DNA of 62,136 bases from Mycobacterium sp. DL440 (GTDB lineage: Bacteria; Actinomycetota; Actinomycetes; Mycobacteriales; Mycobacteriaceae), in assembly GCF_011745145.1 (NCBI RefSeq), contig NZ_CP050191.1, positions 2,494,818 to 2,556,953 on the forward strand. Direction: 5' to 3'. Made by a program: the position numbers and the translations under genes. Positions 44,248 through 48,160 of this stretch are shown here, piece after piece. Under the pieces are notes generated by a model that was not told the DNA's origin, searched no databases, and worked only from the letters and a program-made list of their open reading frames with translations. Numbering within the stretch: position 1 is the stretch's first letter; every line of letters begins with the position of its first letter.

Positions 44248-44886
44248 CTAGCGGCTCATCGACCCCAGGAAGTAGGACTCGTGCCCGGTGGGATATCCGC
44301 CGCCGTCGGTGGCGATGTGTACATGGTCGAAGTGGTTGGCCGTCTCGTTGCCGTAGTCCGCGGTCCAGTGCGGAGCGCCGATCCCGGGATAGAGGCCCTG
44401 ACGCCAGATCACGTGCAGCACACCCCAGCGTTGGGCGTTGGCGAGGGCGAAACCCGCGATCTGATTTCCGAGCTCGATGCCGCCCTTGGAGTGATAGTTC
44501 GGGATCATCACGTCGATGGCGAGACCGTTGGGGTGCCACTTCAGCGCATCCTGGCGATACCCGCCGATCGTGGTGATCTCGGGGAACATCACGGCGATGG
44601 CGCGAGCCACCCAGATCGTCTTGACCTGAAGCCCACCCTCGGGTGCCGGACCTTTCGGCAGGGAGAACTGGAAGTCGCGGGCTACGACGGGCGCGCTGGC
44701 CGCCACCAACTCGGCCTGAGCGGGGACCGGCGCCGGTTGCTGATTGCTGGGCGGTGTTGCCGATGGGGCCTCCGGGCAGCATGTCGACTCGGTGTTCTGC
44801 ACGTACACCATGCTCGCCGCGAGGGTGACGGAGGCGGCAAGCGCCAGCAAGCGTCCCCGCCCCCTAGCCAACCGTCGTTTCCCCAC
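44248..44886 (-). CDS. Secreted LAS-metallopeptidase-like protein (copy 2)
   Basis: 212 residues. Basic start, hydrophobic helix (LLALAASVTLAASMVYV, 13-29), a Cys-Cys pair (36-37) and a Pro-rich linker, then the same domain as at 36643-37263: H118-x2-G-x-A-x-D125 (WHPNGLAIDVMIPN) and H185-x2-H188-x-H190 (NHFDHVHIATDGGGYPTGHE). Long stretches match copy 1, so they are paralogues. The putative zinc ligands are conserved in both, which argues for catalysis. Upstream of its own start is a short gap to the CHAT/MBL unit, on the same strand; independent transcription is likely. Confidence 0.75.
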   Translation of the reverse strand: MGKRRLARGRGRLLALAASVTLAASMVYVQNTESTCCPEAPSATPPSNQQPAPVPAQAELVAASAPVVARDFQFSLPKGPAPEGGLQVKTIWVARAIAVMFPEITTIGGYRQDALKWHPNGLAIDVMIPNYHSKGGIELGNQIAGFALANAQRWGVLHVIWRQGLYPGIGAPHWTADYGNETANHFDHVHIATDGGGYPTGHESYFLGSMSR

Positions 44887-44958: not shown

Positions 44959-45015
44959 TCAGCCCACGCCCCCGGAGGCGTAGGGATACCCCGGCGGGTC
45001 GCCTTCGTCGGTCAT
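44959..45015 (-). CDS. Putative 18-residue peptide of the CHAT-MBL unit
   Basis: ATG with GGAAG 8 bp upstream, starting 14 bp after the MBL stop and ending in TGA. The product is MTDEGDPPGYPYASGGVG: acidic start, a Pro/Tyr-rich centre and a Gly-rich end. Position, ribosome site and strand suggest translation as the third cistron of the CHAT-MBL operon. It is too short for homology arguments, and it may be a chance ORF. Possible roles are a protease substrate, signal or inhibitor; none can be shown from sequence. Confidence 0.4.
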   Translation of the reverse strand: MTDEGDPPGYPYASGGVG

Positions 45016-45029
45016 GTTCACTTCTTCCG

Positions 45030-46136
45030 TCACGCAGTCGCCGAAACCCGCAGTCCCTCACATCCGCTCGCCGGCAGGACGAACTTGGCACCCACATCGG
45101 CGGCCCGGTCCTGCCACGGCTCGGTGAACTGGCTGCGGTAGTTGCAGTAGAACGTGGGCGGCCGTGCCGACCCGAGAATGATCCTGGCGATCGCGGCGTG
45201 ATCCGGGTGCGCGAAATTGTCCCCGTTGGTCGAGATCAGATACCGCTTGGCCGCGATCGCATCGATCAGCTCTACGGTGACGTTGGCCCGGCTGCAGTGG
45301 TGCGGCAGCTTCACCAGATCCAGCCGAACACGTTCCTCGCCAACCGCTGTGGCGTACTTGCTCAAGGACTGCACGAGCACATCGGAGTGGGCGTCCGCGC
45401 CCAACAAGGCGCGTCGGTCCTCATATTCGACGATGAACGCAATACTCGACCCGTTGGCCTCCGAGTTGTCGGCGGTCGACGCCTTCGCCATCGTCCGCAG
45501 GATCTGGTCGGTGAGCTTGTCGGGTAGCGGTGGGACTTCCTTGTGGCGGATCGGCGGTGTCCGCGCCTCCAGCGGTGTTCCCTCGCCGGGTACCAAACCT
45601 GCTGCGGTGACCACTGATCGCCATTCGGTCGCCATCTTCTTCAGCTTCTGCCCGGTGGGGGACAACAGATGGACGGCGGCACCGCCGGGCAGTTCGATGA
45701 CGGGAAGCTCCGTCCTTGAGGCCGAAACCACCACCGGCCCACCGACCTTGGTGCTGACCCGGTCGGGGAACGGGTTGTTCCAGCGGAACGGACCGTCGTT
45801 GATCCGCTGGGTGAGTCGCTCGCCGTCGACGGGCCCCAGCACACTGCCGCCACGTTCACAGTGCACGAATCCGTTGAACCAGATGTCCCGGATCCGGTGG
45901 CGCAGATCCGGATCGGCGAGGATCTGCAGGCTCCCGCCGATGTGATCCTCGTCGACATGGGTGATGACCATCGCCTCGTAGGTTTGGTCGGGCCTTGCCT
46001 TGAGGCGTTCACGCACGGCATCCCAGGAACGCGCGGTGCCGCCGTCGATGAGTATCCGGTGCGTGTCCGCGTTGGTGCCGTACTCGACGACGATGGCATC
46101 GCCGTGACCGCCGGGCAGCATCTCGATGGCCAGCAT
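45030..46136 (-). CDS. Metallo-beta-lactamase-fold hydrolase, ComEC-like
   Basis: 368 residues, no signal peptide, so cytoplasmic. Begins MLAIEMLPGGHGDAIVVEYG, typical of ComEC-type MBL proteins. The metal motif THVDEDHIGG (about 58-67) has Asp in place of the second His of HxHxDH, as is common in this branch. Further ligands are the Asp of LLGADAHSD and the His pair in VKLPHHCSRAN (about 280). Likely a nuclease, phosphodiesterase or peptide hydrolase. It starts 8 bp after the CHAT stop with a GGAG ribosome site, so they are co-translated. Stand-alone MBL proteins of this type often accompany protease-type conflict genes. Confidence 0.85.
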   Translation of the reverse strand: MLAIEMLPGGHGDAIVVEYGTNADTHRILIDGGTARSWDAVRERLKARPDQTYEAMVITHVDEDHIGGSLQILADPDLRHRIRDIWFNGFVHCERGGSVLGPVDGERLTQRINDGPFRWNNPFPDRVSTKVGGPVVVSASRTELPVIELPGGAAVHLLSPTGQKLKKMATEWRSVVTAAGLVPGEGTPLEARTPPIRHKEVPPLPDKLTDQILRTMAKASTADNSEANGSSIAFIVEYEDRRALLGADAHSDVLVQSLSKYATAVGEERVRLDLVKLPHHCSRANVTVELIDAIAAKRYLISTNGDNFAHPDHAAIARIILGSARPPTFYCNYRSQFTEPWQDRAADVGAKFVLPASGCEGLRVSATA

Positions 46137-46144
46137 GACTTCTC

Positions 46145-48160
46145 CTACCCGACCAGCTCGAGGTCGATCTCACCGACGGCGACCAGCAGCAGGCCCACCA
46201 GGAGCCCGCCGGCGACCAGGTCGCGGCGGGCCTGGGTCAGCGCCGATCCCAACGTGATCCCGTCGATCGCCGCGTTTGCGAACAGCGCGGAGACAACAGC
46301 GATAGCGGCCTGGGAAGCGTGCTGGCCCTTGAACTTTGTCAGTGTCGCCACCACCGCTGCGGCGCCCTTGCGGATGAAGGTCGCGGGAAGCGCGCCGAAG
46401 ACGTCACCTGAAATCGCGGAGTCGCAGGCGAACAACAAGACGACCGGTGCGGGATTGGTGGGGAGTCCGAGCTCGCGCGGCGAGATGTCCGGTTGGGACA
46501 GGGTCGAATGGCCGCCGATCTCGATCCGGAACTCGGACTGGGACTGGTCGGTGTGGCCCAGCACGACCAGCAGTTGCGGGTTGGTCTGCTTCACCGCCGT
46601 GCGCCACTTCGGCCAGGTCGATACCCGCGTGCAACTGGCGGGACCTACCCGCTGGGTGAGTGCGGACTCCAGTAGCTCCGACGGCAGTTGATCTGCCGGA
46701 CTGCCGATGTCGGCGCGGTTGGCCGCTGCGTAGACAACGGGCCGCAAGGCCAGTTCAGCGAGCTTCGGGCGCGATTCAGTGGCCGGTACCCGGCCGAGTC
46801 GCACCGTCCGGGCGATGACCCGGTTCATTCCCCAGAACGCCCACGGGCACACCCGTTTGTTGGAGCGGGTCCTCGTGCACCCCTGCGCGGCGGGCCGTTG
46901 GCCGGCGCAATCGCACAGGGCCGCGGTCTCGGTCGGAGCGGGGCCGTCGTAGGCCAGCTCGAAGGGCAGGACGGTCGAGTCCGGGCGCACCATGACCGAG
47001 ATGGTTCGGGCGTCCTGCAGGCCGAGTTCAGCGAGTTTGTCGGCAAATTGGCTGCCGCGCCGGGCGAGCAGGATCAGCAATCTCACCGCTTCGGGATCGG
47101 TGATCGCTCCGGGGGCGGAGTCGTTACCCAGCACCTGCGACGCCACCTGCTCGAACACCTTCGACCAATTCTCTGCGTCGGCAAGGGGAATGCCGTCGGC
47201 ATGGTTGGTGCCGAGCACGGACAGCGTCACACCGTTGTCTTCGAGCGCGACATCCGCACCGGTGACCGCGGTGGGTTCCGAGGGTGAACTCAGGCCGATC
47301 GGCCAGAACTGGATCTCGTCGTCCGGCAGTGCGCTGCTGCGGACGACTGCGACGATCCGGCCTGCACGGATCGGCCGATTGCGGTACAGCACAGTGATGT
47401 TCAGCTGCAGAATCGTTCCATCGTCACCGGCCCGCACCGGGAATGCCGCCGTGGTGCTCGGACGGGTGTGGTCCTGCGGCAACACCATGGGCCGGGTGGC
47501 GTGAAATGTTCCGTCGTCGCTGGTTACATCGATGACCAGGTCGGCCGCTCCGTCCAGGTCGAACTCGACATCCTCTTCGTCGAAGTCGATGCCCCGCTGA
47601 CCGCGGCGGGGGACGGCGATCCGCACCGCGAGCGTATGGTCTTGTCCCGGCGTCAGCACCGTGCAGACCGCATTGTCGCGGAAAAACTCGGCGATGAGCT
47701 GTCGTGGAGTATCGGTGTCGGTGTTCACAGGGGGTGCGACGTGGGCCACCGGGCCGTCGATGCCGCTGCGTGCGGCGTCGAAGGCAGCCGCCACATCCGG
47801 CATCGAGGCCATCACCTGTAGGCCCGTGATGTGATCCCATTGCGCCAGCCGAATGGCATCTTCGGCGGTGACGACGCGGACGTAGAGCACCGAGACATCG
47901 TGATCCTGTGCGCGTCCTACGGTCTTCCGCCACGCAGTATGGAGCCGGGGTGCTACTTGTGCCGTCAATTCCAGGTCCGGTGCCACCCAGTACGGTGGGT
48001 CCGTTGACCCGCCGGGGCCCGAATCCGCGCACATCTCGATCAGTTTGTCGAGCCTTTTCAACAGTTCGTCGACGTTCAACTGCGGCCCCAGCGAGTCGTT
48101 TCCCGTCAGCAATCCGGCAGCGAACAATACGTCGACAGGTATTGCTTCACCGGAGGTCAT
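46145..48160 (-). CDS. CHAT-domain (caspase-fold) protease candidate
   Basis: 671 residues. N-terminal region 1-290 is soluble and of unknown fold, with acidic patches (DFDEEDVEFDLDG). The C-terminal CHAT domain (about 300-671) has the putative dyad His536 in LLVVLGHTDQS and Cys579 in VVLLFACDSAISGD, placed at the ends of successive strands as in caspases and separases. It also carries TFIRKGAAAVVATLTKF. A Cys cluster C416, C418, C428, C438 inserted after VLPFELAYDG may bind zinc. No membrane helix. AGGAG precedes the ATG. First gene of a unit with the MBL gene. Confidence 0.82.
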   Translation of the reverse strand: MTSGEAIPVDVLFAAGLLTGNDSLGPQLNVDELLKRLDKLIEMCADSGPGGSTDPPYWVAPDLELTAQVAPRLHTAWRKTVGRAQDHDVSVLYVRVVTAEDAIRLAQWDHITGLQVMASMPDVAAAFDAARSGIDGPVAHVAPPVNTDTDTPRQLIAEFFRDNAVCTVLTPGQDHTLAVRIAVPRRGQRGIDFDEEDVEFDLDGAADLVIDVTSDDGTFHATRPMVLPQDHTRPSTTAAFPVRAGDDGTILQLNITVLYRNRPIRAGRIVAVVRSSALPDDEIQFWPIGLSSPSEPTAVTGADVALEDNGVTLSVLGTNHADGIPLADAENWSKVFEQVASQVLGNDSAPGAITDPEAVRLLILLARRGSQFADKLAELGLQDARTISVMVRPDSTVLPFELAYDGPAPTETAALCDCAGQRPAAQGCTRTRSNKRVCPWAFWGMNRVIARTVRLGRVPATESRPKLAELALRPVVYAAANRADIGSPADQLPSELLESALTQRVGPASCTRVSTWPKWRTAVKQTNPQLLVVLGHTDQSQSEFRIEIGGHSTLSQPDISPRELGLPTNPAPVVLLFACDSAISGDVFGALPATFIRKGAAAVVATLTKFKGQHASQAAIAVVSALFANAAIDGITLGSALTQARRDLVAGGLLVGLLLVAVGEIDLELVG

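What the first reader, a model, noticed from the sequence alone, without database searches (positions are those of the whole stretch)
44959..48160. CHAT protease-candidate / MBL / micro-peptide operon
The sequence shows a CHAT-type protein with apparent His-Cys dyad (H536, C579), a ComEC-like MBL protein 8 bp downstream, and an 18-codon ORF with its own ribosome site 14 bp after that, all on one strand. CHAT proteases and stand-alone MBL enzymes are both recurrent effectors of bacterial conflict and cell-death systems. This pairing in a mycobacterium, between a secreted-peptidase-like gene and an mce operon, is not one I recognise as described. A two-step system (proteolysis plus nucleic-acid or nucleotide hydrolysis) is an inference.
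Basis: partly seen in the sequence, partly recalled or inferred. Interest (0 to 1): 0.75.

Follow-up and report, generated by a model that had tools for sequence, protein, structure and literature searches.

The report
Protease-switched DNase defence gene pair
This mycobacterium carries two neighbouring genes that look like a caspase-type protease and the locked DNA-cutting enzyme it unlocks to kill or stall an infected cell; relatives often add a membrane-lipid-cutting third gene, of which this genome keeps only a short scar.

Summary
The genes, dyad and spacings are real. H536 and C579 are invariant in 26 of 26 CHAT relatives. The pairing recurs: in 56 loci found with the MBL alone, CHAT lies directly 5' of the MBL in 16, a C14 caspase is in the gene group in 10, a trypsin-like protease lies 3' in 20. 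CHAT and MBL distances correlate (r 0.92); one genome fuses them.

The MBL belongs with the 'gated pro-nucleases' (Avs1a/LmuA/CanC-like). Its two loops carry a motif matched to the partner: [IV]S with trypsin, E-x-[MF]-G with caspases, L-G with CHAT. So CHAT most likely cuts the MBL and frees a DNase, as in Canu (PMC12799240). The window clade keeps L-G in loop 1 only.

The '18-codon micro-peptide' is an in-frame deletion scar of a patatin phospholipase gene, intact in the orthologous locus of a relative. Patatin or Tle1-like phospholipases recur beside CHAT-, caspase- and subtilase-MBL pairs; my nine literature searches showed no description of that. New variant of a known kind; no structure could be predicted.

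The parts
46145..48160 (-). CHAT (caspase/separase-like) protease gene, 671 aa; variable N-terminus, conserved C-terminal peptidase domain
46553..46555 (-). codon of catalytic His536
   Evidence: invariant in 26 of 26
46424..46426 (-). codon of catalytic Cys579
   Evidence: invariant in 26 of 26; aligns with the separase GCSS stretch
45030..46136 (-). MBL-fold hydrolase gene, 368 aa, Avs1a/LmuA/CanC-like gated pro-nuclease candidate
45942..45959 (-). HxDxDH metal motif, residues 60-65
   Evidence: H60, D62, D64, H65 invariant in 36 of 36
45783..45872 (-). gate loop 1, residues 89-118, with putative cut motif S-V-L-G101|P
   Evidence: L100-G101-P102 in 36 of 36 of the window clade; alignment to other protease classes
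45456..45620 (-). gate loop 2, residues 173-227, with L204-P205 at the place where other classes carry their motif
   Evidence: L204 in 28 of 36, P205 in 31 of 36; L204 aligns with the trypsin-class Ile
44959..45015 (-). 18-codon ORF: in-frame internal-deletion scar of a patatin-like phospholipase gene
   Evidence: starts like, and ends like (9 of 13 residues, 21 identical nt across the stop), the patatin of G349; alignment score 57 against at most 40 in 2000 shuffles
44248..44886 (-). conserved flanking gene of unknown family; marks the orthologous locus in G124 and G349

Best explanation
A two-gene suicide or growth-arrest switch of the nuclease-protease type. The CHAT protein is a caspase/separase-like endopeptidase whose variable N-terminal region senses or is triggered by infection or damage (inferred). 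When active it cuts the adjacent MBL protein in two loops that cover its metal site; the most probable cut in the window protein is after Leu100-Gly101 in loop 1, with a less certain second cut around Leu204 in loop 2 (inferred). The freed MBL degrades DNA (inferred from HamM and CanC). The fuller system of this locus, as in G349, has a third gene, a patatin phospholipase, probably a membrane-attacking second effector; in this genome an in-frame internal deletion removed nearly all of it, while CHAT and MBL stayed under purifying selection. Shown here by sequence: the conserved pair, the conserved catalytic residues, the loops and their protease-matched motifs, the patatin scar. Not shown: any cleavage, nuclease activity, phage defence or trigger.
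For: Adjacency: CHAT directly 5' of the MBL in 16 of 56 loci found by an MBL-only query. A CHAT HMM made from proteins found with the window CHAT already hit 14 of 41 loci, 13 of them within 33 nt of the MBL or overlapping (one of the 14, L034, is the same protein as P0011 in the HMM). Coinheritance: distance correlation r 0.92 over 23 pairs, 0 of 5000 permutations as high. MBL-CHAT fusion ORF in L092, both domains over Pfam cut-offs. Dyad invariant 26 of 26. Gate: about 85 extra residues against ComEC (148 against 63 between anchors). Class-specific motif: trypsin class [IV]S in both loops 12 of 15 (expected 6.5 per loop), agreeing with the published Ile sites; C14 class E.[MF]G in both 11 of 13 (expected 0.2 per loop); CHAT outside the window clade LG in loop 2 13 of 13 (expected 4.1), [LM]G in loop 1 12 of 13 (expected 6.0). 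Plasmid loci not used before: DLLG/DLLG and DVLG/DVLG in the two new CHAT loci. Sister MBLs with different partners (L091 CHAT, L025 C14; 97/96, or 93/95 with loops left out) carry DLLG/DFLG against EPMG/ERMG. Published mechanism: PMC12799240.
Against: The window clade lacks Gly at the loop 2 site: LG in 1 of 9, and L[GP] in 8 of 9 is not above chance (expected 5.8), so its second cut is unsure or absent. Motifs were chosen after seeing the alignment; the shuffle values are therefore descriptive. The two new CHAT loci fall in a clade (100/100) that already held four training loci. For the seven new C14 loci the strict motif E.[MF]G holds in only 4 (loop 1) and 2 (loop 2). An E-x-[MFYLHQ]-[GA] string also occurs in loop 2 of 6 of 23 CHAT-linked MBLs. 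On the tree without loops only 1 CHAT/C14 contrast lies on supported branches, too few for significance. One C14-linked MBL (L120) has ESLG, a CHAT-like P2. No structure could be made. CHAT has no detectable relation to CanB. The MBL motif 'HHCS' of the window occurs in 2 of 36 (27 have G, 7 A).
Confidence: 0.6

Rival explanations
1. The pair in this genome is a decaying remnant: after loss of the patatin the system no longer works, although relatives' systems do.
For: Patatin reduced to a scar in the window and absent in G124; 'HHCS' change; loop 2 motif not canonical.
Against: dN/dS of CHAT 0.24 and MBL 0.14 between the two genomes without patatin, against 0.20 and 0.10 for the window and the genome that has it; frames intact; 13 of the 16 CHAT-adjacent loci show no phospholipase in the DNA held, some of them on short contigs.
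Confidence: 0.18
2. CHAT is itself the executioner (cleaving many host proteins) and the MBL is an independent hydrolase, for example of a nucleotide messenger or nucleic acid; no proteolytic activation between them.
For: Both enzyme types act alone in other systems (recalled); nothing was assayed.
Against: Protease-matched motifs in the MBL loops, strong coinheritance, and the assayed relatives HamM and CanC, with Avs1a cleaved in infected cells (PMC12799240).
Confidence: 0.13
3. The 18-codon ORF is a functional micro-peptide (regulator, decoy or substrate of the CHAT protease).
For: Own start codon and plausible ribosome site; frame kept; it retains the tail that 116 of 120 listed patatin homologues share.
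Against: Present in 1 of the 3 orthologous loci; intact patatin in G349, nothing in G124. An in-frame outcome is expected in one deletion of three.
Confidence: 0.05
4. Housekeeping role in DNA uptake or DNA turnover rather than conflict.
For: Similarity to the ComEC nuclease domain; the locus lies among ordinary mycobacterial genes.
Against: Patchy: MBL at E<=1e-20 in 9 of 396 genus genomes and at 1e-15 in 3 of 396 phylum genomes, the window's own counted in both; relatives of the L036 MBL on 48 plasmid records, 36 typed conjugative; protease partners.
Confidence: 0.05

Closest known systems
Canu (caspase-nuclease, KaeCanABC; PMC12799240)
   Same: Caspase-clan protease gene upstream of an MBL pro-nuclease with two gate loops; conserved Gly in both gates of caspase-linked relatives, recovered here as E-x-[MF]-G.
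   Different: Protease is CHAT, not C14; no CanB-like gene or homology; two genes, with a patatin or Tle1 gene as third in some relatives; loop motif L-G; loop 2 Leu-Pro in the window clade. The paper's supplement, where other protease partners are shown, was not seen.
AVAST type 1 (Avs1a MBL, trypsin-STAND)
   Same: Homologous MBL (NCBIfam Avs1a E 6.6e-53).
   Different: Score 179.8 against cut-off 420; no trypsin-like hit in the window; protease lies upstream, not downstream.
Lamassu, Hachiman and DRT variants with an MBL nuclease and fused trypsin
   Same: PADLOC LmuA is the best model for the MBL (6.3e-61), then RTasMBL 2.2e-41.
   Different: No Lamassu, Hachiman or DRT partner among the 10 neighbouring genes scanned.
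TPR-CHAT / Craspase (Csx29) and separase
   Same: CHAT/separase-type His-Cys peptidase; profile meets separase.
   Different: The substrate here would be an adjacent MBL; no CRISPR gene seen. Craspase papers seen in search listings only.
Caspase with alpha/beta-hydrolase neighbour in VMAP ternary systems (PMC7159879)
   Same: Precedent for a caspase with an alpha/beta-hydrolase partner gene (passages).
   Different: MoxR-vWA systems; 'lactamase' and 'patatin' not in the main text (0 hits).

Membership tests
CHAT peptidase family | His-Cys dyad in the C-terminal domain | tested here: met
   H536 and C579 invariant in 26 of 26
CHAT peptidase family | Match to PF12770 | tested here: inconclusive
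   Window protein: no match; 9 of 26 relatives match; PF12770 is precomputed for P0003, P0004, P0007, P0010, P0011
CHAT peptidase family | Caspase fold and dyad geometry | not testable with these tools
   Structure prediction off
Canu | MBL of the gated-nuclease group next to a caspase-clan protease, protease upstream | tested here: met
   (gating itself inferred from the extra residues)
Canu | C14 caspase with Ig-like domain (CanA) | tested here: not met
   Protease is CHAT; no Peptidase_C14 match, no C14 HMM hit in the window. Ig-like fold not testable
Canu | CanB-like middle gene (three-gene prototype) | tested here: not met
   No gene between CHAT and MBL (8 bp); hhalign of CHAT against a CanB-like set of 12, probability 0.3%
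Canu | Conserved Gly in both gates | tested here: inconclusive
   Loop 1 Gly101 36 of 36; the loop 2 site has Pro205 in 31 of 36
AVAST type 1 | Avs1a over curated cut-off, with trypsin-STAND Avs1b | tested here: not met
   179.8 against 420 bits; no trypsin-like hit in the window
Lamassu | LmuB SMC partner | tested here: inconclusive
   Not among PADLOC matches of 10 neighbouring genes (for the kinase gene the best 25 of 32 matches were shown); the rest of the window was not scanned for it
Anti-phage defence system | Protection against phage | not tested
   No experiment

The most novel reading that the evidence does not exclude
Bacteria have a modular two-pronged death cassette in which one infection-triggered protease licenses both a gated DNase and a phospholipase: DNA and membrane are attacked together. 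The protease slot has been filled by unrelated folds (CHAT/C14 caspase clan, subtilase, possibly an M4-like metalloprotease) and the lipase slot by two families (patatin, Tle1-like), while the pro-nuclease rewrote the same two gate sites when its protease changed. The shared patatin tail may be a recognition or control element.
Probability: 0.3. Interest if true: 0.82.

Novelty: new variant of a known kind. Interest (0 to 1): 0.62.

Why it matters
It extends protease-gated nucleases from trypsin and caspase partners to CHAT proteases. It proposes a sequence code (loop motif matches partner protease) that makes cut sites directly testable, and it points to phospholipases as a recurrent third component that I did not find described. 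It also shows how a tiny ORF in an operon can be a deletion scar rather than a micro-protein.

Tried and rejected
Micro-peptide as a gene: rejected (scar). Window MBL as a direct Avs1a: rejected on score and partners. CanB hidden inside the CHAT protein: no homology found. Relocated copy of the patatin elsewhere in the genome: the own genome has 4 Patatin hits, the only tblastn match to the lost type being 27% identical, and none at E<=1e-50. Direct repeats that would explain the deletion: only short, chance-like ones among the 20 of 25 families shown for G349. Phage collection: 1 weak, unannotated match, not followed. First gene calls with a GC3 score missed genes (the caspase of L027); replaced by six-frame HMM searches. 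Independent-pairs test: too few contrasts to decide. Base composition shows no clear island (GC 0.61-0.69 over 40-52 kb). Literature searches: nothing on CHAT-MBL pairs or on patatin or Tle1 with protease-MBL pairs in the rows listed (at most 20 each, out of up to 15,742 papers). Only open-licence PMC papers are held, and the supplement of PMC12799240, whose fig. S2 is cited for 'other diverse' protease families, was not seen, so CHAT may already be listed there.

Rows dropped: the loop tests use 57 of the MBLs in hand; the 9 of 56 loci without protease, L032 and some trypsin loci were not in them. In class lists 'window clade' means window, L019, L020, L029, L030, L031, L033, L034, L048 (9 of the 22 CHAT rows). 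L129 was left out of the new-locus count because its loops and scores are those of L058. L020, L026, L054, L077, L112 were left out of the tree and L020, L026, L054 of that, with L125, L129, L131. L020, L021, L022, L032, L129 were left out of the Mantel test. 12 of 48 matching plasmid records were fetched. Several HMMs were built from members of the loci they then searched (C14, trypsin, Tle1, subtilase, M4-like wholly or mostly; CHAT and MBL in part).
Full report
What is there. On the minus strand, a 671-codon gene (46145-48160), 8 bp, a 368-codon gene (45030-46136), 14 bp, and an 18-codon ORF (44959-45015). The first protein has H536 and C579 invariant in all 26 aligned relatives. It does not reach the Pfam CHAT model itself, but 9 of 26 relatives do, and the family profile finds separase in the PDB with the cysteine stretch aligned (E 7.5e-4; that this Cys is the catalytic one in separase is recalled). 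C416 and C438 are also invariant and C428 nearly so, perhaps a metal site. The second protein is an MBL hydrolase: PADLOC LmuA 6.3e-61, RTasMBL 2.2e-41, Avs1a 2.6e-37, NCBIfam Avs1a 6.6e-53 but below its cut-off, PDB ComEC 1.1e-6. Around it lie a PknG-type kinase gene, a TetR regulator, a gene of unknown family and, on the other side, an mce operon; 10 neighbouring genes gave no convincing defence match.

The third ORF is a scar. In the unnamed relative G349 the same locus reads CHAT, MBL, then a 366-codon patatin (PF01734, E 3.8e-18) that starts MTDDV and ends DPPGFPYPTEGVG. The window ORF, MTDEGDPPGYPYASGGVG, keeps the start and the last 13 codons; 9 of 13 tail residues and 21 nt across the stop are the same. 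The alignment score is 57, against a maximum of 40 in 2000 shuffles. The tail is a family signature: 116 of the 120 listed patatin homologues have it, against about 5 of 120 for internal windows. In G124 the patatin is gone without this scar. Flanking genes show that the three loci are orthologous on one side. CHAT and MBL are under purifying selection between the two genomes that lost the patatin (dN/dS 0.24 and 0.14).

The pair is conserved. One scan of GTDB contigs with the MBL alignment gave 56 loci. By HMMs on six-frame ORFs: CHAT directly 5' of the MBL in 16 (L029-L031, L033-L038, L041, L047, L048, L051, L058, L061, L062); CHAT 2.3 kb away on the other strand in 1 (L032); a C14 caspase in the same gene group in 10, usually with one gene between; a trypsin-like protease 3' in 20, weakly scored in those of L069-L082; none found in 9, at least 4 of which start or end within about 1.1 kb of a contig end. 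Some HMMs were built from members of these loci; an earlier CHAT HMM from proteins found with the window CHAT hit 14 of 41 loci, one of them (L034) the same protein as a member of the HMM. CHAT and MBL distances correlate (r 0.92, 23 pairs, 0 of 5000 permutations). In L092 one ORF holds MBL and CHAT, both over Pfam cut-offs. Within the genus the MBL occurs in 9 of 396 genomes (E<=1e-20) and CHAT in 7 of 396 (E<=1e-3, one of them, G390, weak and without an MBL hit), the window's own counted in both: a patchy spread. Relatives of the L036 MBL lie on 48 plasmid records, 36 typed conjugative; 20 of the 48 are Agrobacterium, several of them alike.

How it probably works. Tuck et al. 2025 (PMC12799240; I read the abstract, introduction, results, discussion and legends, not the supplement) showed that the MBL pro-nuclease of a Hachiman system is cut in two gate loops, after Ile, by a trypsin-like partner, that AVAST uses the same mechanism, and that in Canu a caspase complex activates CanC, whose gates hold conserved Gly. 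Their main text has no mention of CHAT, patatin or phospholipase. I aligned 57 MBLs of known partner. The gates fall at the same places and each class has its own motif: trypsin-linked [IV]S in both loops in 12 of 15 (expected 6.5 of 15 per loop); C14-linked E.[MF]G in both in 11 of 13 (expected 0.2 per loop); CHAT-linked outside the window clade LG in loop 2 in 13 of 13 (expected 4.1), [LM]G in loop 1 in 12 of 13 (expected 6.0), [DE].LG in 8 and 9 of 13 (expected 0.9 each). The subtilase class showed none of these motifs above chance. The trypsin result agrees with the published sites and serves as control. The motifs were read from the alignment before testing, so these expectations are descriptive.

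New loci. Twelve plasmid loci were then fetched; 7 have a C14, 3 a CHAT and 2 no recognised protease beside the MBL. The two new CHAT-linked MBLs (the third equals L058) read DLLG/DLLG and DVLG/DVLG; they belong to a clade with four of the earlier CHAT loci, so they are a mild test. Of the 7 C14-linked, 6 have E-x-x-G in loop 1 (the seventh DVFG) and 6 have E-x-hydrophobic-[GA] in loop 2 (L127 has none); the strict motif E.[MF]G holds in 4 and 2 of 7. Across 41 rows, Glu at the first place of the loop 1 tetrapeptide ending in Gly occurs in 16 of 18 C14-linked and 0 of 23 CHAT-linked MBLs, Leu before the Gly in 1 of 18 and 21 of 23; in loop 2 the string E-x-[MFYLHQ]-[GA] occurs in 17 of 18 and in 6 of 23. 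Partner labels interleave on the MBL tree; the sisters L091 (CHAT) and L025 (C14), support 97/96 with all columns and 93/95 without the loops, differ in both loops as their partners differ. Only one CHAT/C14 contrast lies on fully supported branches, so this is not a significant test.

The window's own clade is an exception in part: loop 1 L100-G101-P102 is invariant in 36 of 36, but at the loop 2 site it has L204 (28 of 36) and P205 (31 of 36), and LG in loop 2 in 1 of 9 rows; L[GP] there is not above chance. PMC12799240 concludes for AVAST that cutting a single gate suffices, so one usable site may do (inference).

A third component. Phospholipase genes recur near these pairs: patatin in L037, L045, L047, L084 and Tle1-like (PF09994) in L036, L040, L053, L054, that is 8 of the 36 loci without trypsin (3 of 16 CHAT-adjacent, 3 of 10 C14, 2 of 9 without protease, 0 of 1 for L032) and 0 of the 20 with it (Pfam confirms L036, L037, L040, L045, L053). 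At the own genome's density (4 Patatin and about 2 PF09994 genes in 6.4 Mb) about 0.5 of 36 would be expected; densities in other taxa were not measured. In the genus, 6 of the 9 MBL genomes have one beside the pair (G349, G156, G269 patatin; G054, G066, G367 Tle1-like), the window has the scar, G124 and G245 have none. Two of the 12 plasmid loci have one (L120, L121). Taking the patatin as query instead, 15 of 396 genus genomes hold it (E<=1e-50); in 11 of 15 it sits beside a protease and an MBL: 2 CHAT, 1 C14, 7 subtilase (patatin-subtilase-MBL operons, PF00082 E 1.9e-41 in L112) and 1 with a weakly M4-like protein (E 0.025). In the other four (L108, L109, L114, L118) no such full set was seen; L118 keeps a subtilase piece and L108 a weak MBL hit. 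So the lipase slot recurs with different protease folds. That the lipase is activated by the protease is inference; the losses in this small clade show that it is dispensable there.

Verdict. The pair is real and selected, and is best read as a CHAT version of protease-gated nuclease defence. The micro-peptide is the trace of a gene loss. New, as far as my searches show, are the CHAT class with its matched motif and the recurrent phospholipase; the principle itself is known.

Noticed in passing
L111 5651-10220, L112 8760-13338, L113, L115, L116, L117, L119: Patatin-subtilase-MBL three-gene operons in 7 mycobacterial genomes, with overlapping or closely spaced genes; the subtilase class gates carry different residues.
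   Followed up: partly
L092 8392-11640: Single ORF joining an MBL domain and a CHAT domain.
   Followed up: partly
P0010 and P0011 (the latter in L021 8899-12147, G245): CHAT relatives whose N-terminus reads as Hsp70/actin-like (1 of 26 rows of A2 matches PF00012; the rest by eye); N-terminal modules of this family are variable, perhaps sensors.
   Followed up: no
L022 and L023 (G054, both ends of contig 1): Two CHAT-MBL copies near the ends of one contig, one with its MBL broken by a stop, each with a C14 caspase nearby.
   Followed up: no
L021 8165-8929: MBL of G245 is truncated (255-codon open frame; match ends at residue 206).
   Followed up: no
L025 4160-11730 and L026: Five-gene cluster: HExxH-bearing protein (no Pfam match), a second MBL, C14 caspase, MBL, Tle1-like phospholipase.
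   Followed up: partly
G000:C1:2892685-2893195: Tle1-like (PF09994) gene of the window's own genome appears split over two open frames.
   Followed up: no
window CHAT residues C416, C428, C438: Conserved cysteines inside the CHAT region (C416 and C438 invariant in 26 of 26), possibly a metal site.
   Followed up: no
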